A stretch of 64,000 bases of DNA from Pomacea canaliculata (taxonomy: Eukaryota > Mollusca > Gastropoda > Architaenioglossa > Ampullariidae): assembly GCF_003073045.1 (NCBI RefSeq), contig NC_037592.1, forward strand, positions 10,692,007 to 10,756,006, read 5' to 3'. The stretch's first letter is position 1; each line of letters opens with the position of its first letter. The notes under the pieces were generated by a model, which worked only from the letters and a program-made list of their open reading frames with translations, had not been told where the DNA came from and made no database searches. The position numbers were made by a program, and so were the translations under genes. Shown here one piece after another: positions 28,216 to 62,239 of the stretch.

Positions 28216-29039
28216 ACAGGGGCTACTAGTATAAGACTACCCATATAACACACCAGTGATTTATGGAAGACAAGTTCAGTAGAAAATAAGACTAACAAAA
28301 TAAAACTGTCACAAAGCAAGCAAAAGCAACATAAAATGCTTTTCCTGAGCTAACACTACTCCCAAGCATGCAAAGTAAACACAGTCGTCAGGATAGGGTA
28401 AATAAAATCAGAAGAAACATGAGGAACTTCTTGTCTTCTTCTTTTCCCTTCCATCACTATTTTGAAAATAAAAGAGAAAAAAGTCACTTCAAAATTATAA
28501 AACATTAGGTCTAAAACATTAAAGAATTTTTAAGGCGGCCAAAGGACCACATATGCATTAAATCCCTGTATCTACACCCCCCCCACACACACACACACAC
28601 ACACAAATGCAATCCATTCATTTTAAAAATAAATGACAATGAAATGAGAACAACTTGAACAAAAATAACATTGAAACTGAAATGAATGGTTACATAAACA
28701 TTAAACTAGAGGCTGAAAAAAAAAGTCACAGGTTCAATACATTGTGACTTTTGCTGTCATTCATTTACCTAAATAATCCATATATGAAGTAACAATTTGC
28801 TTGACTAAACAGTCATCCACCTACCTAAATAACACCGCTTCTTCTGGTAGATCTTCGGTAATCGATCGAAGGTATCTAATCTGCATTGAATTTGGACATG
28901 GTTGGAATTAATAAATAAATAGTATATTTACTTTAGAGTATATATAAGTTATATAAACGTTCTGTATTGTGTATGTACAGGGCTCCTCCTCTCTTCAGGA
29001 CACTTTCATAGCGTGTCTTTTTCTTTATGATGGTTTTAC

Positions 29040-29271
29040 CTTTTCGGCAATTAGAAATTTATTAGTTTCTGTATGGAGAATGAGACTAAGTTTTTAAGAA
29101 GTCCTCCAACGATAATCCTTCAGATATAGTTTGGAGAAAACCAAATAGCTGTTGCACAGCTCGTAACTTTCTTCGGTAACGCTTCAGTTTATGATTAATT
29201 CGAGTCTTTAACACAAAAGATTTAACAAGAGATTTAACACCAAAAACTGGATGACAGCAAGCAGAAGTCAC
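29040..29271 (-). CDS. Exon-module type E, copy 1
   Basis: Most divergent member of the array module: HKLKRYRRKLRAVQQLFGFL then TISEGLSLEDFL, ending at the same AAAG|GTAAA donor. An extra base relative to the second copy (57,697-57,927) breaks its frame near the middle. The function of the module is unknown. Confidence 0.4.
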
Positions 29272-29439
29272 AGGTCATTTCGTGTTTCCTGCTCGGGCTC
29301 CATCTCTTGCGCTGGAGTCTTTTGCTCTGGAGTCTCTTGCGCTGGACTCTGGGAAATGGTAGACCGTTGGTCTGAGAATTTCATCATCTCAATGTTCTAT
29401 ATAAGTGAATTTACAATTTCCAAAAGAAGAAAGACTACT

Positions 29440-29810
29440 TATTCTTCTGGGGACCAAATGTGTTGTAACTAAATATTTCCTTGAGGCTTTGGTTAGTGCG
29501 CATTACTATGGAGCAGAAAGTCACTGATTTGAGGCCAACTTAGACTTGTGGCTGGCCAAGCCCACCGATTATTTCAATCTCAATGTATCTGATAGGGAAA
29601 CGCCAGCACACATTCAAAAGGCCAAGAGACCAAGTCTTTTGATGATAAATGTTGTCATTAATAGCAATCAGTAACTTTTTAAAGAGATGTTTTTGCAACA
29701 GTTTAGAGTTGATTATGAATAAAGATAAATGAATGTCCTGGTTTTAAATTTGATCTCAGGCATGCTGTTTTCATTTTCTGCATGTTTCAACTATTTACAA
29801 AACTTGTTCC
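29440..29810 (-). mobile_element. Fragment of the DYMHLVCLGV transposon family
   Basis: Shares blocks with 58,318-58,690, 59,190-59,580 and 60,480-60,730: pieces reading RTNQSLKEIFSYNTFGPQK and LNVCWRFPIRYIEIE on the minus strand. It lies directly upstream of the type D module at 30,023-29,857 in + coordinates. Confidence 0.55.
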
Positions 29811-29856
29811 TCTATGACCTTAGAGCCTTATAGTTACTGGCTTTATGATGGTTTAC

Positions 29857-30023
29857 CTTTTTATCTGTAAAAAATCGATGCATACGATCGATTAAAATGT
29901 TGCTTAGAGGAAGGATTTCCTCAAACTCAAAAGCCTCTGCAAGTGTGCCAATATAACTCGTTAGGTGATGGATTGCCTTTTTTTTCCTACGATGGGTGGA
30001 ACCCCCTTTTGATGGTTCGGTTG
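29857..30023 (-). CDS. Exon module type D, copy 1
   Basis: A 167-bp exon-like unit, acceptor TTTTTTCAG and donor AAG|GTAAAC, 55 codons entered in phase 1 and left in phase 0. Motifs: HRRKKKAIHHLTSYI and EEILPLSNILIDRM. A basic patch is followed by two amphipathic, probably helical stretches. Upstream on the minus strand (30,161-30,060) an open piece NINYLQFTYSFFTDRYQ ends at a possible donor AACCAG|GTACGG. No known domain recognised. Confidence 0.5.
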
Positions 30024-30306
30024 CTGAAAAAATAAACACGCAAAAAGACTTCTTACACTCCGTACCTGGTTGTGTTGGTATCGATCAGTGAAGAAAGAAT
30101 AGGTGAACTGCAAATAATTTATGTTATCCATACACGCATTCTGAAAACTTTCCTCACTCACTCTCGTTATTCACACTCTTTCATCTGCAACCTTCTCATA
30201 ACTCCAAGACACACTAAATGCATATAATCTAATGGAAACTGTGAAACCATTCCTAAGAGTTCTGAGATACCTTAGAGCCTTAGTTACTGGCTTTATGATG
30301 GTTTAC

Positions 30307-30473
30307 CTTTCCAGCAGCTACGAATCTGTTGATATCATTAATCAGAACAGCACTTAATGGAAGGACTTCTTCCAAACATAGTCCTTCTCCTATAGTTTCG
30401 ATGAACCCAGTGAAATGGTGAATGGCTCTTTTTTTCCTCCGGTGGCGGGAGCCGCCTTTTGAGGTTTCAGTTG
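30307..30473 (-). CDS. Exon module type A (copy 1 of 6)
   Basis: 167 bp, 55 codons, phase 1 in, phase 0 out, acceptor TTTTTTCAG, donor GGAAAG|GTAAAC. Motifs RAIHHFTGFIETIGEGLC and VLPLSAVLINDINRFVA. Other copies: 31902-32068, 33501-33667, 35097-35279 (damaged), 36474-36640, 38096-38269 (indel-rich). Confidence 0.5.
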
Positions 30474-30551
30474 CTGAAAAAATAGACACGCAAAAAGACT
30501 TCTTACACTCCGTACCTTAGAGCCTTAGTTACTGGCTTTATGATGGTTTAC

Positions 30552-30718
30552 CTTTCCAGCAGCTACGAATCTGTTGATATCATTAATCAGAACAGCACTT
30601 AATGGAAGGACTTCTTCCAAAGATAATCCTTCTGCGATTGTTTCGATAAACCCAGTTAGATGATGAATCGCTCTTTTTTTTCTCCGGTGGCGGGAGCCGC
30701 CTTTTGAGGTTTCAGTTG
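30552..30718 (-). CDS. Exon module type B (copy 1 of 5)
   Basis: Same borders, length and phase as type A. It is identical to type A over both flanks and differs only in a central ~60-bp patch (RAIHHLTGFIETIAEGLS). Other copies: 32147-32313, 33746-33911 (one base short), 36719-36886, 38350-38521 (indel-rich). Absent from unit 4. Confidence 0.5.
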
Positions 30719-31379
30719 CTGAAAAAATAGACACGCAAAAAGACTTCTTACACTCCGTACCTTAGAGCCTTAGTTACTGGCTTTATGATGGTTTACCTTT
30801 CCAGCACTTACGAAGCTGTTCATATCATTTATTAGAATTGCACTCAAAGGTAAGACCTCTTCCAAGGTCAGGCTTTCAGCCACTGTTTGAATGAACCAGC
30901 TAAGTGCTGAATGGCTATCTTTTTCCTACGGTGGATGGAGCCCCTTTTGATGGTTCGGTTGCTGAAAAATAAACACGCAAAAGACTTCTTACACAGTGAA
31001 GAAAGAATAGGTGAACTGCAAATAATTTATGCTATCCATACACGCATTCTGAAAACTTTCCTCACTCACTCTCGTTATTCACGCTCTTTCATCTGTTTTT
31101 TTAATTATTTTCTCGCTCTAGCTATAAACTTCAATTTTTTTTAAATTATAAAATGCGAATGAAAAATATCCCCCCCCCCCCAGCGTCCCATATATAATGC
31201 CTTATCCAACTTGGTTGAGTGGCGCGAACATCAAACAACTGCCACACGCAAACTCATTACTAATTTCATTACTAATAAAATGAAATATTGAATTTGGACA
31301 TGGAATTAATAAATAAGTATTATATTTACTTTAGAGTATATATAAGTTAAATAAACGTTCTGTATTGTACGTACATGCT

Positions 31380-31435
31380 GTATCTCTTTGAGGTGAGCCT
31401 CGATCCTCACTGCCGTCGCTATCAGACTGCAACTA
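31380..31435 (-). CDS. Acidic mini-exon candidate, repeated in each unit
   Basis: After an acceptor-like TGCAG the minus strand encodes SDSDGSEDRGSPQRDTA. Same piece in every unit (about 32,990; 34,580; 35,960; 37,575), a variant YDSDGSVDDRGSPERA near 61,390-61,440, and a shorter relative (RDSDEPLK) near 27,345. Acidic SDSD-type segments are known near the N terminus of the DYMHLVCLGV-type proteins, so this may be part of that ORF. Confidence 0.35.
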
Positions 31436-32391
31436 ATTTTTTAAAAAGCCTTAATTAACGTGTCTAGGCATCCATATGTGTATGCTTAGTAACTACTAAA
31501 CCACTAATTTTAAAAAAAAAAAGACATTATACATGTACATATTTCAACCTATTATATAAGGTAAATAAAATTAGAAGAAACATAAGGAACATACCTCTTC
31601 ATGCAAACGCTTCTTTCCTTTTGCTATTAAAAAAAAAGAGAGAAAAAAAGTCATTTCAAAAATTATAAAACATTAGATCTTAAACATTTAAGAACAGGTG
31701 AACTGCAAATAATTTATGTTATCCATACACACCTTCTGAAAACTTTCCTCACTCACTCTCGTTATTCACGCTCTTTCATCTGCAACCTTCTCATAACTCC
31801 AAGACACACATAATGCATATAATCTAATGGAAACTGTGAAACCATTCCTAAGAGTTCTGAGATACCTTAGAGCCTTAGTTACTGGCTTTATGATGGTTTA
31901 CCTTTCCAGCAGCTACGAATCTGTTGATATCATTAATCAGAACAGCACTTAATGGAAGGACTTCTTCCAAACATAGTCCTTCTCCTATAGTTTCGATGAA
32001 CCCAGTGAAATGGTGAATGGCTCTTTTTTTCCTCCGGTGGCGGGAGCCGCCTTTTGAGGTTTCAGTTGCTGAAAAAATAGACACGCAAAAAGACTTCTTA
32101 CACTCCGTACCTTAGAGCCTTAGTTACTGGCTTTATGATGGTTTACCTTTCCAGCAGCTACGAATCTGTTGATATCATTAATCAGAACAGCACTTAATGG
32201 AAGGACTTCTTCCAAAGATAATCCTTCTGCGATTGTTTCGATAAACCCAGTTAGATGATGAATCGCTCTTTTTTTTCTCCGGTGGCGGGAGCCGCCTTTT
32301 GAGGTTTCAGTTGCTGAAAAAATAGACACGCAAAAAGACTTCTTACACTCCGTACCTTAGAGCCTTAGTTACTGGCTTTATGATGGTTTAC

Positions 32392-32558
32392 CTTTCCAGC
32401 ACTTACGAAGCTGTTCATATCATTTATTAGAATTGCACTCAAAGGTAAGACCTCTTCCAAGGTCAGGCTTTCAGCCACTGTTTGAATGAAACCAGCTAAG
32501 TGCTGAATGGCTATCTTTTTCCTACGGTGGATGGAGCCCCCTTTTGATGGTTCGGTTG
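32392..32558 (-). CDS. Exon module type C (intact copy, unit 2)
   Basis: 167 bp with the same splice borders. Motifs IHRRKKIAIQHLAGFI and LTLEEVLPLSAILIND. Other copies: 30797-30961 (two bases short, in homopolymers), 33990-34155, 35359-35526, 36966-37132 and 38605-38764 (cut by the gap). Most length changes sit in homopolymers and may be sequencing errors. Confidence 0.5.
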
Positions 32559-35500
32559 CTGAAAAAATAAACACGCAAAAAGACTTCTTACACAGTGAAG
32601 AAAGAATAGGTGAACTGCAAATAATTTATGCTATCCATACACGCATTCTGAAAACTTTCCTCACTCACTCTCGTTATTCACGCTCTTTCATCTGTTTTTT
32701 TAATTATTTTCTCGCTCTAGCTATAAACTTCAATTTTTTTAAAATTATAAAATGCGAATGAAAAATATCCCCCCCCCCCCCCAGCGTCCCATATATAATG
32801 CCTTATCCAACTTGGTTGAGTGGCGCGAACATCAAACAACTGCCACACGCAAACTCATTACTAATTTCATTACTAATAAAATGAAATATTGAATTTGGAC
32901 ATGGAATTAATAAATAAGTATTATATTTACTTTAGAGTATATATAAGTTAAATAAACGTTCTGTATTGTACGTACATGCTGTATCTCTTTGAGGTGAGCC
33001 TCGATCCTCACTGCCGTCGCTATCAGACTGCAACTAATTTTTTAAAAAGCCTTAATTAACGTGTCTAGGCATCCATATTGTGTATGCTTAGTAAACTACT
33101 AAACCACTAATTTAAAAAAAAAGACATTATACATGTACATATTTCAACCTATTATATAAGGTAAATAAAATTAGAAGAAACATAAGGAACATACCTCTTC
33201 ACATGCAAACGCTTCTTTCCTTTTGCTATTAAAAAAAAAGAGAGAAAAAAAGTCATTTCAAAAATTATAAAACATTAGATCTTAAACATTTAAGAACAGG
33301 TGAACTGCAAATAATTTATGTTATCCATACACACCTTCTGAAAACTTTCCTCACTCATCTCGTTATTCACGCTCTTTCATCTGCAACCTTCTCATAACTC
33401 CAAGACACACATAATGCATATAATCTAATGGAAACTGTGAAACCATTCCTAAGAGTTCTGAGATACCTTAGAGCTTAGTTACTGCTTTATGATGGTTTAC
33501 CTTTCCAGCAGCTACGAATCTGTTGATATCATTAATCAGAACAGCACTTAATGGAAGGACTTCTTCCAAACATAGTCCTTCTCCTATAGTTTCGATGAAC
33601 CCAGTGAAATGGTGAATGGCTCTTTTTTTCCTCCGGTGGCGGGAGCCGCCTTTTGAGGTTTCAGTTGCTGAAAAAATAGACACGCAAAAAGACTTCTTAC
33701 ACTCCGTACCTTAGAGCCTTAGTTACTGGCTTTATGATGGTTTACCTTTCCAGCAGCTACGAATCTGTTGATATCATTAATCAGAACAGCACTTAATGGA
33801 AGGACTTCTTCCAAAGATAATCCTTCTGCGATTGTTTCGATAAACCCAGTTAGATGATGAATCGCTCTTTTTTTTCTCCGGTGGCGGGAGCCGCCTTTTG
33901 AGGTTCAGTTGCTGAAAAAATAGACACGCAAAAAGACTTCTTACACTCCGTACCTTAGAGCCTTAGTTACTGGCTTTATGATGGTTTACCTTTCCAGCAC
34001 TTACGAAGCTGTTCATATCATTTATTAGAATTGCACTCAAAGGTAAGACCTCTTCCAAGGTCAGGCTTTCAGCCACTGTTGAATGAAACCAGCTAAGTGC
34101 TGAATGGCTATCTTTTTTCCTACGGTGGATGGAGCCCCTTTTGATGGTTCGGTTGCTGAAAAATAAACACGCAAAAAGACTTCTTACACAGTGAAGAAAG
34201 AATAGGTGAACTGCAAATAATTTATGCTATCCATACACGCATTCTGAAAACTTTCCTCACTCACTCTCGTTATTCACGCTCTTTCATCTGTTTTTTTAAT
34301 TATTTTCTCGCTCTAGCTATAAACTTCAATTTTTTTAAAATTATAAAATGCGAATGAAAAATATCCCCCCCCCCCAGCGTCCCATATATAATGCCTTATC
34401 CAACTTGGTTGAGTGGCGCGAACATCAAACAACTGCCACACGCAAACTCATTACTAATTTCATTACTAATAAAATGAAATATTGAATTTGGACATGGAAT
34501 TAATAAATAAGTATTATATTTACTTTAGAGTATATATAAGTTAAATAAACGTTCTGTATTGTACGTACATGCTGTATCTCTTTGAGGTGAGCCTCGATCC
34601 TCACTGCCGTCGCTATCAGACTGCAACTAATTTTTTAAAAAGCCTTAATTAACGTGTCTAGGCATCCATATGTGTATGCTTAGTAACTACTAAACCACTA
34701 ATTTTTAAAAAAAAAAGACATTATACATGTACATATTTCAACCTATTATATAAGGTAAATAAAATTAGAAGAAACATAAGGAACATACCTCTTCATGCAA
34801 ACGCTTCTTTCCTTTTTGCTATTAAAAAAAAAGAGAGAAAAAAGTCATTTCAAAAATTATAAAACATTAGATCTTAAACATTTAAGAACAGGTGAACTGC
34901 AAATAATTTATGTTATCCATACACACCTTCTGAAAACTTTCCTCACTCACTCTCGTTATTCACGCTCTTTCATCTGCAACCTTCTCATAACTCCAAGACA
35001 CACATAATGCATATAATCTAATGGAAACTGTGAAAACCATTCCTAAGAGTTCTGAGATACCTTAGAGCCTTAGTTACTGGCTTTATGATGGTTTACCTTT
35101 CCAGCAGCTACGAATCTGTTGATATCATTAATCAGAACAGCACTTAATGGAAGGACTTCTTCCAAACATAGTCCTTCTCCTATTAGTTTCGAGTTGCTGA
35201 TGATTCTTAACCAGTGACGAATGGTGAATGGCTCTTTTTTTTCCTCCGGTGGCGGGAGCCGCCTTTTGAGGTTTCAGTGCTGAAAAAATAGACACGCAAA
35301 AAGACTTCTTACACTCCGTACCTTAGAGCCTTAGTTACTGGCTTTTATGATGGTTTACCTTTCCAGCACTTACGAAGCTGTTCATATCATTTATTAGAAT
35401 TGCACTCAAAGGTAAGACCTCTTCCAAGGTCAGGCTTTCAGCCACTGTTTGAATGAAACCAGCTAAGTGCTGAATGGCTATTCTTTTTCCTACGGTGGAT

Positions 35501-37099
35501 GGAGCCCCCTTTTGATGGTTCGGTTGCTGAAAAAATAAACACGCAAAAAGACTTCTTACACAGTGAAGAAAGAATAGGTGAACTGCAAATAATTTATGCT
35601 ATCCATACACGCATTCTGAAAACTTTCCTCACTCACTCTCGTTATTCACGCTCTTTCATCTGTTTTTTTAATTATTTTCTCGCTCTAGCTATAAACTTCA
35701 ATTTTTTTAAAATTATAAAATGCGAATGAAAAATATCCCCCCCCCCCCCCCCAGCGTCCCATATATAATGCCTTATCCAACTTGGTTGAGTGGCGCGAAC
35801 ATCAAACAACTGCCACACGCAAACTCATTACTAATTTCATTACTAATAAAATGAAATATTGAATTTGGACATGGAATTAATAAATAAGTATTATATTTAC
35901 TTTAGAGTATATATAAGTTAAATAAACGTTCTGTATTGTACGTACAGGCTGTAATCTCTTTGAGGTGAGCCTCGATCCTCACTGCCGTCGCTATCAGACT
36001 GCAACTAATTTTTTAAAAAGCCTTAATTAACGTGTCTAGGCATCCATATGTGTATGCTTAGTAACTACTAAACCACTAATTTTAAAAAAAAAAAGACATT
36101 ATACATGTACATATTTCAACCTATTATATAAGGTAAATAAAATTAGAAGAAACATAAGGAACATACCTCTTCATGCAAACGCTTCTTTCCTTTTGCTATT
36201 AAAAAAAAAGAGAGAAAAAAAGTCATTTCAAAAATTATAAAACATTAGATCTTAAACATTTAAGAACAGGTGAACTGCAAATAATTTATGTTATCCATAC
36301 ACACATTCTGAAAACTTTCCTCACTCACTCTCGTTATTCACGCTCTTTCATCTGCAACCTTCTCATAACTCCAAGACACACATAATGCATATAATCTAAT
36401 GGAAACTGTGAAACCATTCCTAAGAGTTCTGAGATACCTTAGAGCCTTAGTTACTGGCTTTATGATGGTTTACCTTTCCAGCAGCTACGAATCTGTTGAT
36501 ATCATTATCAGAACAGCACTTAATGGAAGGACTTCTTCCAACATAGTCCCTTCTCCTATAGTTTCGATGAAACCCAGTGAAATGGTGAATGGCTCTTTTT
36601 TTCCTCCGGTGGCGGGAGCCGCCTTTTGAGGTTTCAGTTGCTGAAAAAATAGACACGCAAAAAGACTTCTTACACTCCGTACCTTAAGCCTTAGTTACTG
36701 GCTTTATGATGGTTTTACCTTTCCAGCAGCTACGAATCTGTTGATATCATTAATCAGAACAGCACTTAATGGAAGGACTTCTTCCAAAGATAATCCTTCT
36801 GCGATTGTTTCGATAAACCCAGTTAGATGATGAATCGCTCTTTTTTTTTCTCCGGTGGCGGGAGCCGCCTTTTGAGGTTTCAGTTGCTGAAAAAATAGAC
36901 ACGCAAAAAGACTTCTTACACTCCGTACCTTAGAGCCTTAGTTACTGGCTTTAATGATGGTTTACCTTTCCAGCACTTACGAAGCTGTTCATATCATTTA
37001 TTAGAATTGCACTCAAAGGTAAGACCTCTTCCAAGGTCAGGCTTTCAGTCCACTGTTTGAATGAAACCAGCTAAGTGCTGATGGCTATCTTTTTTCGCT

Positions 37100-38764
37100 A
37101 CGGTGATTGGAGCCCCTTTTGATGGTTCGTTGCTGAAAAAATAAACACGCAAAAAGATTCTTACACAGTGAAGAAAGAATAGGTGAACTGCAAATATTTA
37201 TCTATCCATACACGCATTTCTGAAAACTTTCCTCACTCCACTCTCGTTATTCACGCTCTTTCATCTGTTTTTTTTAATTATTTTTCTCGCTCTAGCTATA
37301 AACCTTAATTTTTTTTAAAATTATAAAAATGCCCGAATGAAATATCCCCCCCCCCCCGCGTCCCATAATAAGCCTTATCCCACTTTGTTGACGTGGCGCG
37401 AACATCAAACAACTTTGCCACCACGCAAACTCATTACTAATTCATTACTAATTAAATGAAATATTTGAATTTGGAATGAATTAATAAACTAAGTATTATA
37501 TTTACTTTAGAGTATGATATAAGTTAAATAACGTTCTATTGTACGTTACAATGTGTGATCTCTTTGAGGTGAGGCCTCGATCCTCACTGCCGTCGCTATC
37601 ACCCGACTGCAACTAATTTTTTAAAGAGCCTTAATTTACGTGTCTAGGCAAATGCCATGATGTGTATGCTTTAGTAACTACAACCAACTAATTTTAAGAA
37701 AAAAAAGACATATACATTACAATTTCAACGCTATTATATAAGGTAAATAAATTTAGCCAGAAACATAAGGAACATACCGTCTTCCTGCAAACGCTTCTTC
37801 CTTTTGCTATTTAAAACCACAAAGAGAAAAAAAAGTTCATTTCAAAAAATTACTAAAACATTAGATACTTAAACATTAGAACAGGTGAACTGCACATAAT
37901 TTATGTTATCCATACACACTTCTGAAACTTCCCCATCTCACTCTCGTTTATTCACGCTCTTTCAATCTGCAACCTCCTCATAACTCTCAAGACAAACATA
38001 ATGCATATAATATCTAATGGGAAAACTGTGAAACCATTCCTAAGAGTTCTGAGATACCTAGAGCCTTAAGTTTTACTGGCTTTAGTGATGGTTACCTTTC
38101 TCAGCAGCTCCACGAATCTGTTGAATATATTAATCAGAACTAAGCACTTAATGGAAAGACTTCTTCAAACATAGTCCTTTCTCCTATAAGTTTCGTGAAC
38201 CCATGGAAAATGGTGATGGCGTCTTTTTTTCCTCCGGTGGCGGAGCCGCCTTTTTGGAGGTTTCAGTTGCTGAAAAATATAGAACACGCAAAAAGACTTC
38301 TTACACTCCGTACTTGAGCCTTAGTTACTGGCTTTAATGATGGTTTAACCTTTCCAGCAGCTACGAATACTGTTGATATCCATTAATCAGAACCAGCATT
38401 AATGGAAAGGACTTCTTCCAAAGCATAATCCTTCTGTCGATTGTTTCGATAACCCAGTTAGATGATGAATCGCTCTTTTTTTTCCCTCCGGTGGCGGGAG
38501 CCGCCTTTGAGGTTTCAGTTGCTGAAAAATAGACATACCTGGCAAAAAACTTCTTACCTCCCGTACCTTAGAGCTTAGTTTATATGGCTTTATGATCGTT
38601 TAACCTTTCCAGCACTTACGCGAAGCTGTTATATCATTTATTAGAATGCACTCAAAGGGTAAGACCTCTTCCAAGGTCAGGAGCTTTCAGGCACTGTTTG
38701 AATGAAACCAGCTAAGTGCTGAATTGGGCTATCTTTTTCTAACGGTGGATGGAGCCCCCTTTTG
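37100..38764. other. Low-quality assembly stretch before the gap
   Basis: Compared with sister repeat units this stretch has very many one- and two-base insertions and deletions spread evenly over coding-like and non-coding parts alike. That is the pattern of unpolished long-read sequence, not of evolution. Confidence 0.8.
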
Positions 38765-38864
38765 NNNNNNNNNNNNNNNNNNNNNNNNNNNNNNNNNNNN
38801 NNNNNNNNNNNNNNNNNNNNNNNNNNNNNNNNNNNNNNNNNNNNNNNNNNNNNNNNNNNNNNNN
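38765..38864. other. Assembly gap, 100 N
   Basis: Exactly 100 N, the conventional size for a gap of unknown length. The left flank is in module C of the sixth repeat unit; the right flank is unrelated sequence, so the array's true end is not seen. Confidence 0.99.
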
Positions 38865-44520: not shown

Positions 44521-44576
44521 AAACAGACAATGGAGTGTTGGCCTAAACGCCATGAAGGAGGAGCAGAACTGAACCG

Positions 44577-50838: not shown

Positions 50839-50984
50839 TTTAATTGCAGCAGATTCTCGCCTCAACTCTTGAATAACCAGCGCCAAAGCCTCAGGATTGA
50901 TGCCATTCTCACACAATCTGACACACAGGGCTAGGGTATCTGTGTCCAAGCCGGTGTTCAACAATTTGGATATTTCGGCAAGGA
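50839..50984 (-). pseudogene. MZT1: MZT1 core exon, second copy
   Basis: 146 bp with acceptor CTGTGCAG and donor AAA|GTATG both intact. It differs from the first copy by two bases: one silent, and one that gives Glu in AEISKLL, the residue also found in human MZT1. No N-terminal exon was seen, and the candidate last exon lies on the other strand at 54,758. So as assembled it cannot make the full protein, although the exon itself looks unharmed. Confidence 0.6.
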
Positions 50985-51491
50985 CTGCACAGAACATAAA
51001 GCAAAATTTTCGCTGATTAATGCTAATGTTTAGATGTTTTGAGTAATATGAATGGAAACTTTGTGTATAGGTTGTTGTTGGTTTGGTACTGCGCGACACG
51101 ACAAACTAAATGGATCGTAGGAAGACGGTAACCAAACGTCAAGCAAAAAAATTTAAACACAGAACCATTACTTTTGTGCCGAAAACAATAAACATTTTGA
51201 GAGTTACATGCAAAATAAAAGATATATTTATTTATGAAAAGTAGGAAAGAGCGTACTGTCTAATGTTTCTCTGGCATTCGATACTTTGGGCTTCCCTCCA
51301 GCTTCTGCCATTTTTGTTTATGACTGACGAGCTCAAGAAATATTCTTCTATGCTAAATTTTTATATTATTATCCTCTTTATAAAAGAAAGGCTTTAATAT
51401 ATTAAATATATTCTACATATATATCTATCAAAATTATTATATAATTATATATAAATTATTTCGAATCTTGTCGCTGTACATCACAAGCGAA

Positions 51492-51504
51492 CGGAAGTGA
51501 CGTA
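51492..51504 (-). promoter_or_regulatory. ETS/CRE composite in the second promoter copy
   Basis: CGGAAGTGACGTA, identical over this word to the first copy (reverse complement at 20,989-21,001) although surrounding bases differ. Confidence 0.5.
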
Positions 51505-51748
51505 ATATTGAGTTGCAATCGGCGGTTTGAACGAATGGACGTTACTCCTCTCAAAGCAAGTTGGGGCACATATCATATACAGAACATGAGGAAGAAAAGT
51601 AGGGATTTAACTGAATCAGTGTGCTGAGACTTAAAATATTTAAGGAATCAAATGTTTATCGATTGTTTTTCGAGTCGTCGATCATGCCTTTCTTGCTGTT
51701 CATTGCTAGACGGAAACTTTTGAAAATACATTTGTCATTGTGAAGACA

Positions 51749-54319
51749 ATGAATCGTTTGAATGTGCGTGTCAGTCAAAGTGTTAGTGTAAGTAGAGTTT
51801 AAATCTCCTCATTCCTGTTTTAATCAGACATCTCATTTCGATAACAGTGTTTCTTTACTTGCTGATGTATCATCGTAATCAGAATCTAAAGTCCAGAAGG
51901 GAATGCGTTAAGAAACAAGTATTAGATGCATGAGCAATTACCCACTGAGCGTGGTGTTTATAGTTTTGATGCTTGGATTTTAAATTAATTTCTGATTACA
52001 GTGTTTATTAGTAATAGATTGAACCATTTTAACTCATGCAGTTCTGCTTGTTACTTTATGGTTGATAGTTTCCTGTTTGGGGGTGTGCATGCTTTCTTAG
52101 GAGTGTGAGTATTCGCTTTACAAATTTTGTGTTTATTATTATTATGCCTCAGTTTAGGAGTTATGTAAAAATTGATGTAAACAGCCATGTTTGTTGTTCA
52201 TTATTTTTCAGGGATGGCATAGCAGAAATAGAGCAGTAGATGAATGTATTTCTTCCACTGAGACAGTGATGAGCTAGAGGGGAAAGTAGAATGTGTGTGA
52301 ATGGAATTCACTGGTTTTGCATTCAAGCCAGTGAACCTCAAAAGTTTCAAGAATCAGTCCAAAATTAAAAAAGAAAGCTAGATCACTCCATTGTCACAGA
52401 ATTAAAACATTGAACCACAAAATTATGGATGATTTTAGATTAAACAAATTTTAACAATAATTTTGTTATAATTCTTTTGCAGAATCCAAGTGGACTAAAA
52501 ATGACAGCATATATCTATCTTTCAACATAAATATTTGAGATCAGGTTATTTTGAAGCTTATAGTGGGAGAAGAGAAAATTTTGGATTCAAAGTTCAGAAT
52601 GTATCCTTGATGGGCAGAAGGGCAGCAGCATTATTTAGCATGCAGACGTGAAAACAGCAGGAAAAAGACCGCCCCTTGAAGAGGGTAATGATGAGCTGAC
52701 ACTTGGTCACTCAAACTACTTACTCAGAATCAAAATACTCCCTTGAAAACATCCATGATGAACAAACATCAGTCAAAGATGTCTTTGAAAGATGTGTGTT
52801 TAGACTCTGTTTTTGATCCTAGTCCCTTCCCTCATGGTGATGCAAAACAACAACAGTTGGCAGGAAGAAAGATGCCTGCTTCACCAGATGATGTCCATCC
52901 TCTTCCTTTGAATGTACATGCTCAGAGCCACAGTGCTGAAGGTATCAGGACATTATCCAGACTTGGTATAAAAGAAGGGGCGTACCATCCGAGCCCCAGG
53001 CAAGTGCCCCACAGTCTTCTGAATTGTGGAAGCAGTCTGCATTCTGATGCATACCTTCGACAAGCTCTTACCAGTCCTTACACCAGAAGGACAAAAGATA
53101 CATTGTTTCCAAGTTCTAAAGATGGTACAAATAACATGATGGCTGCCAGTCCATATGTAGCAAATGTTAGGACTACAGGTTTCTTAAAAAAAGATGATGG
53201 AACAAACCATGTGAAGTATGGAGAGACTTCTAGGCATGAGATTTTTAAGACACCAATAAGGTGAGAAATATTTGAATGGCATTTGCACAAAAGGGTTTAT
53301 TATTTACTCTGTGTACAAAGTACCCTTTGGGCTGTATTATCTTTACCAACTAGGGTCTTGTTGTTACAACGACAGTATAAATGAATTGAGAAAGAACATT
53401 ATCTGTATGATATTTATTGTTTGTGTACATGTAAGCAGATATGTGAATGGTGATGTATAAAAATTTGTTATTCTTTCCAACTTCCTTTGTAAAATATTAG
53501 GAAAGAAGAGACTATACAACAGAAGTATAGACCAAATCATGAGATGTCTCCACCCTCATCAGTGTCATCTGACAGCAGCTCTTGGAGTCGTCACTGCTCA
53601 CATAACCCATTTGAAATAGGATCTGATCGCCTACATTTCCCCATGTTCAGTCCTGGATTGCTTCACACAGTATCCACACCATCAAGTACTGAGGTCAGAA
53701 GGATTTGATCGTTAAAAACATAGGTCAAGACTATTGAAGGAGTCTTTGATGAGGTTGCTGCCATTTTAATTGAATTATTTGATTTGAGCATAATGTCTTT
53801 TTCATAAACATTCACAGACCTACATCTTTAGCCATATTTAGCAATCAAAATGTTAGGTTTATATAGCAAAGCTTGAGTAAGGAAATTTGTGTAATGATAG
53901 TGGTCTATATATTTTCTTAATGCTGTCTTCTAGGGGATATGTACATTTACTGTTGGTCCACAAGTAGACATTATAATCAGATGCTGTGCTTCTGTGTCAT
54001 GCTGTCAGTTTCATTTCTTATATTTTTATTTCACAGAGAAGCCAGATAATGCGATGAGCAAATGTCTGAATGAAAGCTTTAATGAAATCTGATTTTTATT
54101 TACAGATAGGTGATCAATCTGTTGTGTTGCTTACATGAAGATGTAGCACATAATGTAATAATTACCTTTTGTATTTTTGTGTGCTTTAAAAACATTTTTC
54201 ATCAAACTAAAATGCTTTCAAAAGGGAGGGTCATTCAGATGGAATATTGAACACCTTGCTGAATTGCGACCAGTACACATTGATGAGAAGGACATCAAAC
54301 GACAGCTTGCAAGATATAG
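51749..54319 (+). pseudogene. BORA: Truncated BORA duplicate, exons 1-4 only
   Basis: Exons 51749-51787, 52639-53260, 53501-53693 and 54225-54319 correspond to exons 1-4 of the full gene, and all splice sites are kept. Exon 2 carries two extra bases (CTTACTCAG against CTTTCAG, near 52,727) that shift the frame and stop translation soon after. By eye, base differences in exon 2 after that point are about six amino-acid-changing to one silent; in exon 3, three to one. A 50-bp insertion lies at 52,505-52,554. Exons 5-13 are missing. Confidence 0.85.
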
Positions 54320-54355
54320 GTAATCTTTAGGCTAATGATGACTACAACTACGTTA

Positions 54356-54627
54356 GCAAACTAAGGGAACTAGCAGAAACTAAGGGAAACTAAAGGAAAC
54401 AAGCAGAAACTAAGGGAAACTAGCAGAAACTAAGGGAATCTAAGGGAAACTGAAGGAAACAAGCAGAAACTAAGGGAAACTAAGAGAAACTAGCAGAAAC
54501 AAAGGGAAACTAGCAGAAACTTAGGGAAACGGAGGTAAACTAGCGGAAACTATAGGAAACTAGCAGAAACTAAGGGAAAATAGCAGAATCTAAGGGAAAC
54601 TAGCAGAAACTTAGGGAAACGAAGAAG
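54356..54627. repeat. Minisatellite, ~20-bp unit
   Basis: Imperfect repeats of GGGAAACTAGCAGAAACTAA, with half-unit shifts, at the exact point where BORA intron 4 homology stops and shortly before the directly duplicated block begins. Confidence 0.92.
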
Positions 54628-54757
54628 ACTGACCGCTGGTACACCATCGTGTACTCCTACCTTCCCTCGCACGGGCGAAACCATTTGAAAACACGCCCAT
54701 TTCGACTTCGGCCTTTAATTTACAAATCCCAATTTTCCCATTTTTTATTATCTTCAG

Positions 54758-54865
54758 AAGCTGTACAGAAGAACAATGGGTGGATGGAGGCTTCAGATAA
54801 CATCATCGAAAAAAGCAGCAGCAGAAAGAGTCGGGGTAGAAAGCAGAGAGAACAAAACTAAATGC
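54758..54865 (+). pseudogene. Copy of the candidate MZT1 C-terminal exon
   Basis: Same acceptor and frames as 23,466-23,573 with a 3-base insertion. It now lies on the opposite strand from, and beyond, the second MZT1 core exon, so it cannot be spliced to it. Confidence 0.5.
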
Positions 54866-56584
54866 TAGGATATTTCAAGGAGGTGACAACTGCGTTTCTG
54901 TGGCCTGTGAATTTTCTGGAATTTACTGTATTATTATGGCAGAATTGTGTAGCTACGTTTCTTCGTTGGAATTTGGCATGCTGAACAGCTGTATAGATGT
55001 TTTATTCATTTTTGGAAAATCACCTTGGATTATCCAGCTTTTTTGCTGCACTGTATCAGCCTCTGTATACCAAACTGTGTGCTAATTCCCCCTCCCTCCC
55101 CCCACCCCCCGCAACCAGTTCATCACCTATTTTCTGATGGAAAAAAGAGACTTACAAGAAACTGAATTTAAAAACTGTGACATCGTTATTATCCTCATCT
55201 TCAGTTAAGGGCAGGCAGCTGAGGTAAAAATTTTCTTTTATGTTTTATGGGATAGAGCATATTTTTGCAGTCACCTTAATTTTAAAAAAATTTGGTCTAC
55301 ACATCTGTACTACACTAGTTGCCCCTCCGTATTCGCAAAAAATGCACTCTTCTTTCAAAAGGTCTTTAGATATTTATCTCTTTCTTGAACCAGAGCCTTG
55401 ATCTTCTAGTATTGTGCATAGCTCTATCTCTCTCTCTTTTGAGTGTGAGAGAGAGAGACATGAACTGACTTTTGTATTACACCAAAGAATGGCTTTAAGG
55501 TCTTGCAATTATTATTACTTAGATTTCTAGAAAACTTGGAACATTAACATTAATGGTGTATGTTATCAGCACGTTACAAACTTTTAAAGTTATCTAAATA
55601 CGCCAGATAGGCATCAAAATTAACTCATTGATTATTTATTACTAGAATAGTAATACATGTATTTCAGAAAATAGAGAAGACCAAAGATTCATAAATAATA
55701 CCTCTTTCAGACCGTACATGAGAAAAACTAACGCATTGATGACTATCACTTAGGTCCTTACAAATGCATGAAAGGTCTTTACGAGGTCCTTACCTGGCAC
55801 CATCCCAAATCAGGCCGCTGTCTGCTAACTGACAATGGCATTGCGACTCCAGAAGCATGGAGGGGATTCGAGTGGGATCCATGTTGATATCTTTGTCAGT
55901 TGCATTCCAGTGACGTTGGGCACAGTTATGTGGCATGCCACTGAAAATCTGTGGCAGACGTCATCATTATATGAGGGCGTTGTACTACTTTAGTCTGGTT
56001 TCCAACCTTTTTTCTTTTATTACAACTTGTTTGTTTGATACATGCACACGGGCACACATACACAAAGGCAGTCTTCTTGTCAATGTGCCCGGTCTTGTGA
56101 CTGGAACACTTGTGACGTCACATTTGTGCACAAATATGCCTGTGAGGTCCTGCATGATGCTAAAGAGGTATTGAAGTAGACGGAAGTTGTTTTTTCTTGT
56201 ATTTTGATAGCTTCTCCCTCTGGAGCTTGCTTGGGCTGAAAAAAAAAAGATGCAAAAAGACTTCCTACACTCCGTACCTGGTTGTGTTGGTATCGATCAG
56301 TGAAGAAAGAATAGGTGAACTGCAAATAATTTATGTTATCCATACACGCATTCTGAAAACGTTCGCTACTAACTAGAGTTTCCATTAGAGTATATAGAAG
56401 TTATATAAACGTTCTGTATTGTATGTACAGGGCTCCTCTTCTCGTCCCTGACTGGTTTCCCCTTGCTCGTCTTATCTCTCTGCAAATAATTAAAAATACT
56501 GCTTTTGCCTCCCTTATCTTTTCCAGAGCTAACAGTACTCCCAAGCATGCAAAGTAAACACAGCCTTCCTCTCCTTGTTTTAAA

Positions 56585-56949
56585 ATTTATAATGTTTTCA
56601 ATAGTAGGTTGCCGAAAAGCTTTGCGCTGGGCCTTCTTTCTAGCGCGCTAGGCCACCCTACATTCCTTTGTGAACCAAGGCACCCGTGGGTGGTTATTTC
56701 AATGCCTCCGTGTAGGGATTGTCTCTGATGCGATTTCAGTCAAAATTGAGGTGAAGACTTTGGCAGGATGTTACATAGGATCATTGCCAAAGTCCCCAAC
56801 CTCAAAATTAAAAGTGGAGTTTCAGAGAAGGCGGGTGCAGCAGATGGTCTGAAAAGCAGGCCAGTCCGCTTTAGCCAAATTCCACTCGCCGCTATTAAGA
56901 TTATTGTCCCGTTCCAGACTATTTTTAAATTTTAAAATTATAGGGAAAT
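56585..56949 (-). mobile_element. LINE endonuclease fragment, second copy
   Basis: Copy of the left end of the Jockey/I-like fragment, carrying only the last third of the endonuclease domain and the linker (HPRVPWFTN). The remaining part and the RTE-like LINE of the first copy are absent. Confidence 0.8.
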
Positions 56950-57696
56950 AAAAAATAAAACTGTCACAAAGCAAGCAAAAGCAACATAAAATGCTTTTCC
57001 TGAGCTAACACTACTCCCAAGCATGCAAAGTAAACACAGTCGTCAGGATAGGGTAAATAAAATCAGAAGAAACATGAGGAACTTACTTCTTTTTCTTCTT
57101 CTTTTCCCTTCCATCACTATTTTGAAAATAAAAGAGAAAAAAGTCACTTCAAAATTATAAAACATTAGGTCTAAAACATTAAAGAATTTTTAAGGCGGCC
57201 AAAGGACCACATATGCATTAAATCCCTGTATCTACACACCCCCCCCCCACACACACACACAAATGCAATCCATTCATTTTGAAAATAAATGACAATGAAA
57301 TGAGAACAACTTGAACAAAAATAACATTGAAACTGAAACGAATGGTTACATAAACATTAAACTAGAGGCTGAAAAAAAAAGTCACAGGTTCAATACATTG
57401 TGACTTTTGCTGTCATTCATTTACCTAAATAATCCATATATGAAGTAACAATTTGCTTGACTAAACAGTCATCCACCTACCTAAATAACACCGCTTCTTC
57501 TGGTAGATCTTCGGTAATCGATCGAAGGTATCTAATCTGCATTGAATTTGGACATGGTTGGAATTAATAAATATATAGTATATTTACTTTAGAGTATATA
57601 TAAGTTATATAAACGTTCTGTATTGTGTATGTACAGGGCTCCTCCTGTCTTCCAGGAAGCTTTCATATCGTGTCTTTTTCTTTATGATGGTTTTAC

Positions 57697-57927
57697 CTTT
57701 TCGGCAATTAGAAATTTATTAGTTTCTGTATGGAGAATGAGACTAAGTTTTAAGAAGTCCTCCAACGATAATCCTTCAGATATAGTTTGGAGAAAACCAA
57801 ATAGCTGTTGCACAGCTCGTAACTTTCTTCGGTAACGCTTCAGTTTATGATTAATTTGAGTCTTTAACACAAAAGATTTAACAAGAGATTTAACACCAAA
57901 AACTGGATGACAGCAAGCAGAAGTCAC
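57697..57927 (-). CDS. Exon module type E, copy 2 (intact)
   Basis: Open version of the most diverged module: SLVKSFVLKTQINHKLKRYR, then AVQQLFGFLQTISEGLSLED, ending NKFLIAEK before AAAG|GTAAAA. It shows that the module pattern (basic patch, then xxF/LxxTIxEGLSLED) is kept across strongly diverged copies. Confidence 0.45.
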
Positions 57928-58740
57928 AGGTCATTTCGTGTTTCCTGCTCGGGCTCCATCTCTTGCGCTGGAGTCTTTTGCTCTGGAGTCTCTTGCGCTG
58001 GACTCTGGGAAATGGTAGACCGTTGGTCTGAGAATTTCATCATCTCAATGTTCTCATATAAGTGAATTTACAATTTCCAAAAGAAGAAAGACTGCTCTTA
58101 TCATGCTCCGTGAGCCGGCCTGCCTGTGGTTGCCTCCTGCCTGTGGTTGCAGGGGGGCAATTTGTCCCTCTTCCTTGTTTGTCCCCCTTCCTTGTTTCTG
58201 GCATCCTTCCTCCGCAGACTCTTGTGCTGGAGTCTGGAAAAATGGTAGACCGTTGGTATGAGAATTTCATAATCTCGATGTTCTCATATAACTGAATTTA
58301 CAATTTCTAAAAGAAGAAAGACTACTTATTCTTCTGGGGACCAAATGTGTTGTAACTAAATATTTCCTTGAGGCTTTGGTTAGTGCGCATTACTATGGAG
58401 CAGAAAGTCACTGATTTGAGGCAACTTAGACTTGGCTGGCCAAGCCACCGATTATTCAATCTCAATGTATCTGATAGGGAAACGCCAGCACACATTCAAA
58501 AGGCCAAGAGACCAAGTCTTTGATGATAAATGTTGTCATTAATAGCAATCAGTAACTTTTTAAAGAGATGTTTTGGCAACAGTTTAGAGTTGATTATGAA
58601 TAAAGATAAATGAATGTCCTGGTTTTAAATTTGATCTCAGGCATGCTGTTTTAATTTTCTGCATGTTTCAACTATTTACAAAACTTGTTCCTCTATGACC
58701 TTAGAGCCTTAAATTAGTTACTGGCTTTATGATGGTTTAC

Positions 58741-58904
58741 CTTTTATCTGTAATAAATCGTGTCATACGATCTATCAGAATATTACTGAGAGGAAGGATT
58801 TCCTCAAACTGCAAGGTTTCTGCCATGGTGGCAATGTACGACGTTAAATGGTGTATTGCCTTTTTCTTTCTTCTATATGTTGAGCCCTTTTGATGGTTCG
58901 GTTG
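58741..58904 (-). CDS. Exon module type D, copy 2 (short by three bases in homopolymers)
   Basis: Same splice borders as D1. Length differs in T and C runs only. Encodes AIHHLTSYIATMAETLQF. Confidence 0.4.
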
Positions 58905-59153
58905 CTGAAAAAAATAAACACGCAAAAAGACTTCTTACACTCCGTACCTGGTTGTGTTGGTATCGATCAGTGAAGAAAGAATAGGTGAACTGCAAATAAT
59001 TTATGTTATCCATACACGCATTGTGAAAACTTTCCTCACTCACTCTCGTTATTCACGCTCTTTCATCTGCAACCTTCTCATAACTCCAAGACACACTAAA
59101 TGCATATAATCTAATGGAAACTGTGAAACCATTCCTAAGAGTTCTGAGAGGAG

Positions 59154-59580
59154 ATTCTCCAGTTTTGTGATTTGAAAAGCACATTTCATCAAATGCTTAT
59201 TCTTCTGGGGACCAAATGTGTTGTAACTAAATATTTCCTTGAGGCTTTGGTTAGTGCGCATTACTATGGAGCAGAAAGTCACTGATTTGAGGCCAACTTA
59301 GACTTGTGGCTGGCCAAGCCCACCGATTATTTCAATCTCAATGTATCTGATAGGGAAACGCCAGCACACATTCAAAAGGCCAAGAGACCAAGTCTTTTGA
59401 TGATAAATGTTGTCATTAATAGCAATCAGTAACTTTTTAAAGAGATGTTTTGGCAACAGTTTAGAGTTGATTATGAATAAAGATAAATGAATGTCCTGGT
59501 TTTAAATTTGATCTCAGGCATGCTGTTTTAATTTTCTGCATGTTTCAACTATTTACAAAACTTGTTCCTCTATGACCTTA
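59154..59580 (-). mobile_element. Transposon-family fragments between modules
   Basis: Minus strand reads MKCAFQITKLENLLSELL, then MVSQFPLDYMHLVCLGVMRRL just left of it (59,049-59,155), preceded by RTNQSLKEIFSYNTFGPQK. Same family as 60,079-60,622. Confidence 0.6.
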
Positions 59581-59614
59581 GAGCCTTATAGTTACTGACT
59601 TTATGATGGTTTAC

Positions 59615-59933
59615 CTTTTTAGATTTGATAAACCTGTCCATGTTTTCAATAAGAAGTAAGCTTAATGGCAGGATGTCTTCTAATGTCAAGCCTGCTGCCA
59701 TAGTTTCAATGAAACCAGTGAGGTGATGGATAGCCTTTCTCTTACGTCTGTGGTGGGAGCCGCCTTTTGATGTTTCGTAAAAAATCGATGCATTCGGTCT
59801 ATTAAGATGTTACTTAGAGGAAGGATTTCCTCAAACTCCAATGCTTCTGCCATGGTGGCAATGTAAGAGGTTAAATGATGTATAGCCTTTTTTTTTCTTC
59901 GATGTGTTGAACCCCCTTTTGATGGTTCAGTTG
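59615..59933 (-). CDS. Fused modules: type D joined to type G
   Basis: The D module (acceptor side at 59,933) loses its last bases near 59,777 and joins directly, without intron, to a new type G (HHRRKRKAIHHLTGFIETMA, LTLEDILPLSLLLIENMDRF) that keeps its donor at 59,615. The join is out of frame. It looks like a deletion between neighbouring modules. Confidence 0.55.
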
Positions 59934-60078
59934 CTGAAAAAATAAACACGCAAAAAGACTTCTTACCTGGTTCGTACCTGGTTGTGTTGGTATCGATCAG
60001 TGAAGAAAGAATAGGTGAACTGCAAATAATTTATGTTATCCATACACGCATTGTGAAAACTTTCCTCACTCACTCTCG

Positions 60079-60622
60079 TTATTCACGCTCTTTCATCTGC
60101 AACCTTCTCATAACTCCAAGACACACTAAATGCATATAATCTAATGGAAACTGTGAAACCATTCCTAAGAGTTCTGAGAGGAGATTCTCCAGTTTTGTGA
60201 TTTGAAAAGCACATTTCATCAAATTGAGCATCCGTTCGAGGGAACAGCCAAGCTCAGGGTAAACAACCTTTCCATCCCAAAATCCTTTTTGTACACACTT
60301 TTCACACGCCATAATATCGTGAATGACCTTTCACTTGCTTTACAAACGCGCAAGCTAGTGCATCACTGATAAAACAAGACAAATTAATCTGTACACACTG
60401 AGGGATACCTTCTTGTGACGGTAAGGGGGTTGTTACCTCTGTAAATGTGGTTATCACCTTTTCCCGTGCATGAGTGAGAATGTGCACCCTCAGTATTTCA
60501 ATCTCAATGTATCTGATAGGGAAACGCCAGCACACATTCAAAAGGCCAAGAGACCAAGTCTTTTGATGATAAATGTTGTCATTAATAGCAATCAGTAACT
60601 TTTTAAAGAGATGTTTTGGCAA
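60079..60622 (-). mobile_element. DYMHLVCLGV transposon ORF, central part
   Basis: Two overlapping frames read, in order: LTHAREKVITT, INLSCFISDALACAFVKQVK, GHSRYYG, CEKCVQKGFWDGKVVYPELG (a Cys-x-x-Cys element), MKCAFQITKLENLLSELL and QFPLDYMHLVCLGVMRRL. This is the block order of the invertebrate transposase-like family. The C-terminal part is missing. Confidence 0.75.
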
Positions 60623-60780
60623 CAGTTTAGAGTTGATTATGAATAAAGATAAATGAATGTCCTGGTTTTAAATTTGATCTCAGGCATGCTGTTTTAATTT
60701 TCTGCATGTTTCAACTATTTACAAAACTTGTTCCTCTATGACCTTAGAGCCTTATAGTTACTGGCTTTATGATGGTTTAC

Positions 60781-60947
60781 CTTTTTATCTGTAATAAATC
60801 GTGTCATACGATCTATCAGAATATTACTGAGAGGAAGGATTTCCTCAAACTGCAAGGTTTCTGCCATGGTGGCAATGTACGACGTTAAATGGTGTATTGC
60901 CTTTTTCTTTCTTCTATATGTTGAGCCCCCTTTTGATGGTTCGGTTG
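60781..60947 (-). CDS. Exon module type D, copy 3 (intact)
   Basis: 167 bp, borders and phase as in the other modules. Encodes YRRKKKAIHHLTSYIATMAE and EEILPLSNILIDRMTRFI. Confidence 0.5.
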
Positions 60948-61902
60948 CTGAAAAAATAAACACGCAAAAAGACTTCTTACACTCCGTACCTGGTTGTGTT
61001 GGTATCGATCAGTGAAGAAAGAATAGGTGAACTGCAAATAATTTATGTTATCCATACACGCATTCTGAAAACTTTCCTCACTCACTCTCGTTATTCACGC
61101 TCTTTCATCTGTTTTTTTAATTATTTTCTCGCTCTAGCTATAAACTTCAATTTTTTAAAATTATAAAATGCGAATGAAAAATATCCCCCCCCCCCCCAGC
61201 GTCCATATATAATGCCTTATCCAACTTGGTTGAGTGGCGCGAACATCAAACAACTGCCACACGCAAACTCATTACTAATTTCATTACTAATAAAATGAAA
61301 TATTGAATTTAGACATGGAATTAATAAATAAGTATTATATTTACTTTAGAGTATATATAAGTTAAATAAACGTTCTGTATTGTACGTACAAGCCCTTTCA
61401 GGTGAGCCTCGATCGTCGACACTGCCGTCGCTATCATACTGCAAATAATTTTTTAAAAAGCCTTAATTAACGTGTATAGGCACCATATGTGTATGCTTAG
61501 TAACTACTAAACCACTAATTTTTTTTATAAAAAAAAGACATTATACATGTACATATTTCAACCTATTATATAAGGTAAATAAAATTAGAAGAAACATAAG
61601 GAACATACCTCTTCGTGCAAACGCTTCTTTCCTTTTGCGATTTAAAAAAAAAAAGAGAAAAAAAGTCATTTCAAAAATTATAAAACATTAGATCTTAAAC
61701 ATTTAAGAATTTTTTTCCTCCAAGGTCATTTTAAAATCTATAATGTCAAATAAACACGCAAAAAGACTTCTTACACTGCGTACCTGGTTTTAAATTTGAT
61801 CTCAGGCATGCTGTTTTCATTTTCTGCATGTTTCAACTATTTACAAAACTTGTTCCTCTATGACCTTAGAGCCTTATAGTTACTGGCTTTATGATGGTTT
61901 AC

Positions 61903-62069
61903 CTTTTTATCTGTAATAAATCGTGTCATACGATCTATCAGAATATTACTGAGAGGAAGGATTTTCTCAAACTGCAAGGTTTCTGCCATGGTGGCAATGT
62001 ACGACGTTAAATGGTGTATTGCCTTTTTCTTTCTTCTATATGTTGAACCCCCTTTTGATGGTTCGGTTG
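61903..62069 (-). CDS. Exon module type D, copy 4 (intact)
   Basis: 167 bp; differs from copy 3 by a Glu to Lys change (EKILPLSN). It sits downstream, on the minus strand, of the transposon-family piece at 62,240-62,621, in the same order as at 60-61 kb. Confidence 0.5.
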
Positions 62070-62239
62070 CTGAAAAAATAAACACGCAAAAAGACTTCTT
62101 ACACTCCGTACCTGGTTGTGTTGGTATCGATCAGTGAAGAAAGAATAGGTGAACTGCAAATAATTTATGTTATCCATACACGCATTGTGAAAACTTTCCT
62201 CACTCACTCTCGTTATTCACGCTCTTTCATCTGCAACCT

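What the first reader, a model, noticed from the sequence alone, without database searches (positions are those of the whole stretch)
28980..62085. Array of at least 25 exon-like 167-bp modules with mutually exclusive geometry
Six sequence types (A-E, G) keep the same length, a TTTTTTCAG acceptor, an AAAG|GTAAA donor and the same open frame despite strong divergence between types. Each enters in phase 1 and leaves in phase 0 (2 mod 3 in length), so splicing two copies together breaks the frame while choosing exactly one preserves it. That is the hallmark of mutually exclusive exon clusters such as Dscam. No known domain is evident: a basic patch followed by two likely helices.
Basis: partly seen in the sequence, partly recalled or inferred. 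Interest (0 to 1): 0.85.

Follow-up and report, generated by a model that had tools for sequence, protein, structure and literature searches.

The report
Diverged coding exons between near-identical introns
An animal genome holds a row of look-alike coding exons whose protein has been kept while their DNA has drifted far apart, yet the introns between them are almost identical, so the exons look as if they were swapped like cassettes; whether the cell picks one exon at a time is not shown.

Summary
The modules are real, on the minus strand. A profile search finds 25: 19 at 29040-38764 and 6 at 57697-62069, in two contigs joined by a 100-N gap. Ten of 25 are exactly 167 nt and open; nine of these give an undisturbed peptide. 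Coding is supported: in five types tested only one of six frames is stop-free, and changes there are mostly synonymous. The phase 1-in, 0-out geometry holds. 'Dscam-like' remains unproven: no constant exons, no RNA, no docking site; types B and C recur as identical copies; an exon-4-like stretch might also allow a chain with one module per unit. The strongest new observation is that divergence stops at the exon borders: types differ by 15-39% inside the exon (B-C 7%), but by 0.3-2.1% in 244-773 flanking bases. I read this as an old tandem-exon array whose introns are homogenised by recombination while exon types persist. The locus, beside BORA and MZT1, also holds transposase-like and LINE debris, so a decaying exon graveyard is the main rival.

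The parts
29857..30023 (-). module type A, 167 nt, intact
30307..30473 (-). module type B, 167 nt, intact (further intact B copies 31902-32068, 33501-33667)
30552..30718 (-). module type C, 167 nt, intact (further intact C copy 32147-32313)
32392..32558 (-). module type D, 167 nt, the only intact copy (30797-30961 and 33990-34155 carry indels)
60781..60947 (-). module type A2, 167 nt, intact (second intact copy 61903-62069; copy with indels 58741-58904)
59615..59933 (-). head-to-tail fusion of module A3 (59778-59933) and module G (59615-59777); donor end of A3 and acceptor end of G lost
57697..57902 (-). module type E, intact copy, 206 nt from a TGTCATCCAG acceptor, phase 1 to 0 (other copy 29040-29246 carries a frameshift)
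33746..38764 (-). further copies of B, C, D, none undisturbed, ending at the N gap
30307..38101 (-). tandem units of about 1.6 kb (29-nt mini exon, exon 4, D, C, B, transposase-like debris); five spans compared, the first three almost identical, the fourth shorter
31375..31426 (-). putative 'exon 4', 52 nt, phase 0 to 1, SDSDGSEDRGSPQRDTA (same at 32976-33027, 34569-34620; 49-nt variant 61390-61438)
24694..24941 (-). diverged module-like exon F: first half alike, then a different tail to a stop (other copy from 56235 down)
26983..27333 (-). transposase-like fragment (DGLPLFHFSCNQFWPIL...); related pieces at 63079-63363, 62439-62669, 59052-59297; the name rests on recall, no Pfam match

Best explanation
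This is a tandem array of old, homologous coding exons (a 55-residue basic patch plus predicted two-helix hairpin of no known family) in one or more animal genes. Shown: coding constraint, phase 1 in and 0 out, and divergence confined to the exons. Inferred: each transcript uses one module per unit, because two neighbours break the frame. Inferred: unequal crossing-over and short-tract gene conversion keep remaking the array, so the introns stay nearly identical, while distinct exon types persist because conversions that overwrite a useful type are lost. Likely traces of such exchange are the tandem 1.6-kb unit, the A3-G fusion, and the B/C pair, which differs only in the middle of the exon.
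For:: 25 module matches; omega is 0.09-0.20 in the 11 of 15 type pairs with a finite estimate (dS 0.90-3.43 apart from B-C, 0.23); in the other 4 synonymous sites are saturated; the 25 nt downstream are 96-100% identical in all 15 pairs, the 40 nt upstream 88-100% in the 10 pairs without G; only frame 2 is stop-free in the four pairs tested, with pS 0.59-0.90 and pN 0.10-0.27; A vs A3 has 20 of 25 changes at third codon positions. A vs A2a 35/167 mismatches in the exon, 3/451 outside; D unit vs A2a unit 60/167 and 13/762; G vs A2a 53/155 and 1/287; of 73 mismatches between the D and A2a units 60 are in the module, 5 in exon 4, 2 in the mini-exon span (one is its acceptor base) and 6 elsewhere; leaving out B-C and the same-type pair A2a-A2b, mismatches begin 4-25 nt inside the acceptor and stop 4-14 nt before the donor.
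Against: No RNA, no named species, no relatives in the collections searched, no constant exons found. Identical B and C copies add no diversity. Fifteen of 25 copies are not exact open 167-mers; some may be true decay. The C-D comparison has 8/82 flank mismatches, and A vs A2c 16/773, 12 of them at the far end of the stretch. Ordinary homogenisation would be expected to leave less sharp borders. Units contain transposase-like debris.
Confidence: 0.45

Rival explanations
1. Exon graveyard: the modules are exons of a multi-copy mobile element or of a dead gene family. Their deep synonymous divergence and low omega date from the time when the elements were active; the array itself makes no host transcript.
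For: Transposase-like pieces with stops or frameshifts sit inside the units and LINE endonuclease pieces nearby; exon-4-like sequence runs straight into a transposase-like fragment at about 27340; one mini exon has lost its AG acceptor; the A3-G fusion is broken; 15 of 25 copies are not exact open 167-mers.
Against: Nine copies keep frame and splice sites while the transposase-like pieces are broken; it does not explain why introns are nearly identical between deeply diverged exons.
Confidence: 0.27
2. Repeat-protein gene: exon 4 (phase 0 to 1) and one module (phase 1 to 0) alternate, so that a long transcript strings together one module per unit instead of choosing one in the whole cluster.
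For: Exon-4 variants of 49 and 52 nt, both 1 mod 3, differ by in-frame indels and fit the module phase; by my own count from the sequence a further variant near 26151 is 46 nt.
Against: Only 4 of 7 measured exon-4 copies are 1 mod 3, and three of these four are copies of one sequence; the others are 50, 51 and 53 nt. Exon 4 is open in a second frame too and its donor is unconfirmed. Three adjacent modules per unit still cannot all be used.
Confidence: 0.15
3. Exon-bounded conversion: diverged exons were pasted into near-identical introns using spliced RNA or cDNA of paralogues as template.
For: Divergence begins and ends within a few bases of the splice sites in many type pairs, and exon 4 shows a small excess too.
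Against: No direct trace of a cDNA donor; genomic conversion plus selection gives a similar picture; the mechanism is rare in animals (recalled).
Confidence: 0.08
4. Copy number of the 1.6-kb tandem units is inflated or scrambled by assembly next to the gap.
For: Units 1-3 differ by 0-1 substitutions from consensus, and differences rise toward the gap.
Against: Does not touch the type-to-type divergence or the second array.
Confidence: 0.05

Closest known systems
Dscam-hv mutually exclusive exon clusters (arthropods)
   Same: Tandem homologous exons of which one per cluster is used.
   Different: Dscam-hv has constant exons, clusters coding for parts of Ig domains and one variant per mRNA (passages of PMC3364881). 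Here none of these is shown, some exons recur as identical copies, and introns are more alike than exons.
Tetrahymena LRR genes with arrays of exactly 90-bp exons
   Same: Arrays of exons of fixed length and fixed intron phase, with clonal expansions (passages of PMC6564038).
   Different: Those exons have phase-2 introns on both sides and are used in a row; the present module alone is phase 1 to 0 and had no Pfam match.
Venom genes with conserved introns and variable exons (conotoxins, snake phospholipase A2)
   Same: Introns kept while coding exons vary (conotoxins: passages of PMC3862624; snake phospholipase A2: recalled; the 1993 paper was seen only as a reference in PMC4963849, and is not held).
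   Different: There replacement changes dominate the mature toxin (recalled). Here changes are mostly synonymous, omega 0.09-0.20, and the units are exons in a row, not whole genes.
MHC class II exon 2 against its introns (recalled, from no call)
   Same: Old exon lineages kept by selection amid introns homogenised by recombination.
   Different: MHC exon 2 is under diversifying selection at replacement sites and is allelic; this is a tandem array.

Membership tests
Mutually exclusive exon cluster (Dscam type) | Tandem homologous exons sharing phase and splice sites | tested here: met
   types A, A2, B, C, D; E shares the phase but not the acceptor
Mutually exclusive exon cluster (Dscam type) | Joining two modules breaks the reading frame (true of some such clusters) | tested here: met
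   167 is 2 mod 3; frames 0 and 1 hold 3-8 stops in the five types tested
Mutually exclusive exon cluster (Dscam type) | Constant flanking exons in the same gene | tested here: inconclusive
   none recognised by reading the sequence; the 5' ends of both arrays lie in the gap or outside the window
Mutually exclusive exon cluster (Dscam type) | Docking and selector sequences (in part of such clusters) | tested here: inconclusive
   one 12-nt complement to the shared 78-nt intron, 0.54 expected from shuffles; only exact 12-mers, one intron and this window were tried
Mutually exclusive exon cluster (Dscam type) | Transcripts with exactly one module | not testable with these tools
   no RNA data on hand
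Repeat-protein exon array (Tetrahymena LRR type) | Repeated exon with the same phase on both sides | tested here: not met
   module alone is phase 1 to 0; module plus a 49- or 52-nt exon 4 would be symmetrical
Mobile-element exon family | Dispersed copies in the host genome | not testable with these tools
   no whole genome is held for this window
Mobile-element exon family | Element ends (terminal repeats, target-site duplications) | not tested
   no search for element ends was made
Known protein domain | Match to Pfam or PDB | tested here: not met
   types C, A, D and G no Pfam family at E up to 10, E none at E up to 1; type C no PDB sequence match; hairpin model, pLDDT 83.7, pTM 0.44, no Foldseek match

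The most novel reading that the evidence does not exclude
An exon-swapping system: diverged versions of one coding exon are repeatedly written into near-identical introns by a process that respects exon borders (spliced RNA or cDNA as template), giving a renewable set of alternative exons of which one per unit is used.
Probability: 0.08. Interest if true: 0.9.

Novelty: new variant of a known kind. Interest (0 to 1): 0.56.

Why it matters
In ordinary duplicated genes introns drift faster than exons. Here exon synonymous sites are at or near saturation in most type pairs while the DNA beside them differs by about 2% or less, so recombination with selection, or an exon-bounded copying process, must act at exon scale. 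If transcribed, it would be a new family of alternative exon arrays in animals and a natural test of how exon arrays renew themselves without losing their variants.

Tried and rejected
Chance or non-coding repeat: rejected by profile E-values and the frame test.

Unspliced short genes: module ORFs run 77-90 codons through the putative introns; in the intact B, C and D copies listed there I see no Met before the module. Not pursued.

Direct joining of the FQNACMDNINYLQFTYSFFTDRYQHNQ stretch (minus, just upstream of A-type modules) to a module: by reading the sequence it ends in phase 0 before GTACGG and would put the module out of frame; its relative before F has a different length. Treated as a relic; no call tested it.

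Mobile introns dropped into one long ORF: rejected, because directly concatenated 167-nt modules are not in frame.

Functional constraint as the cause of intron identity: unlikely, since the near-identical flanks run through transposase-like debris (inference).

Relatives elsewhere: four viral-contig scans with module or transposase-like peptides and one with an intron DNA pattern gave nothing, nor did one scan of prokaryote genome contigs. I would expect few animal sequences in these collections, so this says little.

The first sliding comparison misaligned neighbouring modules such as A-B and was replaced.

Paper searches for this pattern: searches returned no paper; some searches returned listings, from which four papers were seen in passages (in 42 only reference-list entries). 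None described this array in what I saw.

Full report
What is there. The modules are on the minus strand. A nucleotide profile from seven window modules finds 25 copies (worst E 6.1e-21) and one chance-level match. Nineteen lie at 29040-38764, up to a 100-N gap (38765-38864); six lie at 57697-62069, in the next contig. Ten of 25 are exactly 167 nt and stop-free in frame 2 between TTTTTTCAG and GTAAA; nine of these give an undisturbed peptide. Of the other 15, ten are 164-183 nt with indels or stops, two are type E (another acceptor, 206 nt in the intact copy), two form the A3-G fusion at 59615-59933 and one is cut by the gap. Near the gap the unit sequence becomes noisy: units 1-3 differ from their consensus by 0-1 substitutions and 4-12 indel columns, unit 4 by 23 substitutions and 270 indel columns, unit 5 by 150 and 61, partly from misalignment. 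I take most indels as consensus errors (inference).

Coding. Of six frames only frame 2 is stop-free in the four type pairs tested (types A, A2, B, C, D), and there synonymous change (pS 0.59-0.90) far exceeds replacement change (pN 0.10-0.27). Over 15 pairs of six types omega is 0.09-0.20 in the 11 pairs with a finite estimate; 4 pairs are saturated at synonymous sites. A and A3 differ at 25 places, 20 of them third codon positions. Types C, A, D and G matched no Pfam family, nor did E, and type C matched no PDB sequence. A model of type C from seven window sequences is a two-helix hairpin (H5-29, H33-54; pLDDT 83.7, pTM 0.44) without a Foldseek match.

Geometry. Module: phase 1 in, phase 0 out. 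Joining two modules puts the second in frame 0, which has 3-8 stops in the five types tested. A 29-nt mini exon has the same phases by my reading; other mini-exon-like stretches differ in length. A further exon-like stretch, 'exon 4' (acceptor TTGCAG, donor GTACGT or GTACAT), was measured in 7 of 10 anchored places: 49, 50, 51, 52, 52, 52 and 53 nt. The 49- and 52-nt versions are phase 0 to 1 and differ by in-frame indels; 50, 51 and 53 do not fit. Exon 4 is open in two frames, so its reading is not secure. If real, exon 4 and module could alternate in one transcript. The geometry thus says 'one module per unit', not necessarily 'one per gene'.

The main surprise. Between types the exon is strongly diverged while the DNA on both sides is nearly the same (mismatches in exon against flank): A vs A2a 35/167 against 3/451; A vs A2b 35/167 against 2/364; A vs A2c 35/164 against 16/773; D unit vs A2a unit 60/167 against 13/762; G vs A2a 53/155 against 1/287; A3 vs A2b 22/149 against 7/562; A3 vs A 25/149 against 5/244. 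Indel columns were set aside (0 to 54 per pair). The two same-type comparisons (A2a vs A2c, A2a vs A2b) show no excess, as expected. Two pairs with short flanks are weaker: B vs C 11/167 against 0/72 and C vs D 41/167 against 8/82. Of 73 mismatches between the D and A2a units, 60 lie in the module, 5 in exon 4, 2 in the mini-exon span (one is its acceptor base) and 6 elsewhere. Of 28 pairs, leaving out B-C and the same-type pair A2a-A2b (A3-G could not be measured, A3 and G only on one side), mismatches start 4-25 nt inside the acceptor and end 4-14 nt before the donor, with identical runs of 11-151 nt upstream and 16-120 nt downstream. At the matching place of the two duplicated arrays one has A and the other A2 (35/164), while two other duplicated stretches differ by only 14/1138 and 21/2228. 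Twelve of the 16 flank mismatches there lie at the far end, 29324-29421. Exons with old divergence therefore sit in young surroundings.

How it most likely works. Recombination within and between the arrays keeps introns alike, and exon types are old lineages that persist under purifying selection on the peptide. The tandem units, the A3-G fusion and the B/C pair (identical ends, different middle) are likely traces of such exchange. Why the borders are so sharp is not explained by this; an exon-bounded, RNA-templated copying process would explain it but has no direct support here. The graveyard reading is fed by transposase-like debris inside the units (DGLPLFHSSCNQFWPILG, FPLDYMHLVCLGVMRRL; family name recalled, no Pfam match), by LINE endonuclease pieces and by broken copies.

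Host. The window holds BORA (Pfam BORA_N, 1.6e-10) and MZT1 (Pfam MOZART1, 8.9e-22), so I take it for an animal genome; species unknown and no whole genome held.

Literature. Dscam-hv (passages), Tetrahymena 90-bp exon arrays (passages) and conotoxin introns (passages) are the closest parallels seen; the snake phospholipase and MHC parallels are recalled. The listings of ten paper searches showed nothing on this array, in a library that lacks most subscription journals.

Noticed in passing
18202-22277 and 50209-54359: Inverted segmental copy of the MZT1 region and part of BORA (BORA assignment of these ORFs partly recalled), 93.3% identical.
   Followed up: partly
23421-25658 and 54713-56949; 28297-29439 and 56952-58096: Direct segmental copies at 98.2% and 97.7% that link the two arrays across the gap.
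   Followed up: partly
25411-26037 and 27672-28085, minus: LINE-type endonuclease pieces; Pfam Exo_endo_phos_2 3.3e-20 in the first, sub-threshold Exo_endo_phos (E 0.0029) in the second.
   Followed up: no
26520-28545, 31560-31700, 57040-57205, 61560-61730, minus: Short A/G-rich mini-exon-like stretches of differing length between conserved AATAG and mostly GTAAGT/GTATGT borders; one copy has lost its AG.
   Followed up: partly
54335-54665: Tandem repeat with a 10-base period (family D2).
   Followed up: no
38765-38864: 100-N scaffold gap; sequence left of it is increasingly rich in indels.
   Followed up: yes
43517-43873, minus: Weak, sub-threshold Pfam match to PanZ (E 0.0004, 20.3 bits against a cut-off of 22), probably chance.
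   Followed up: no
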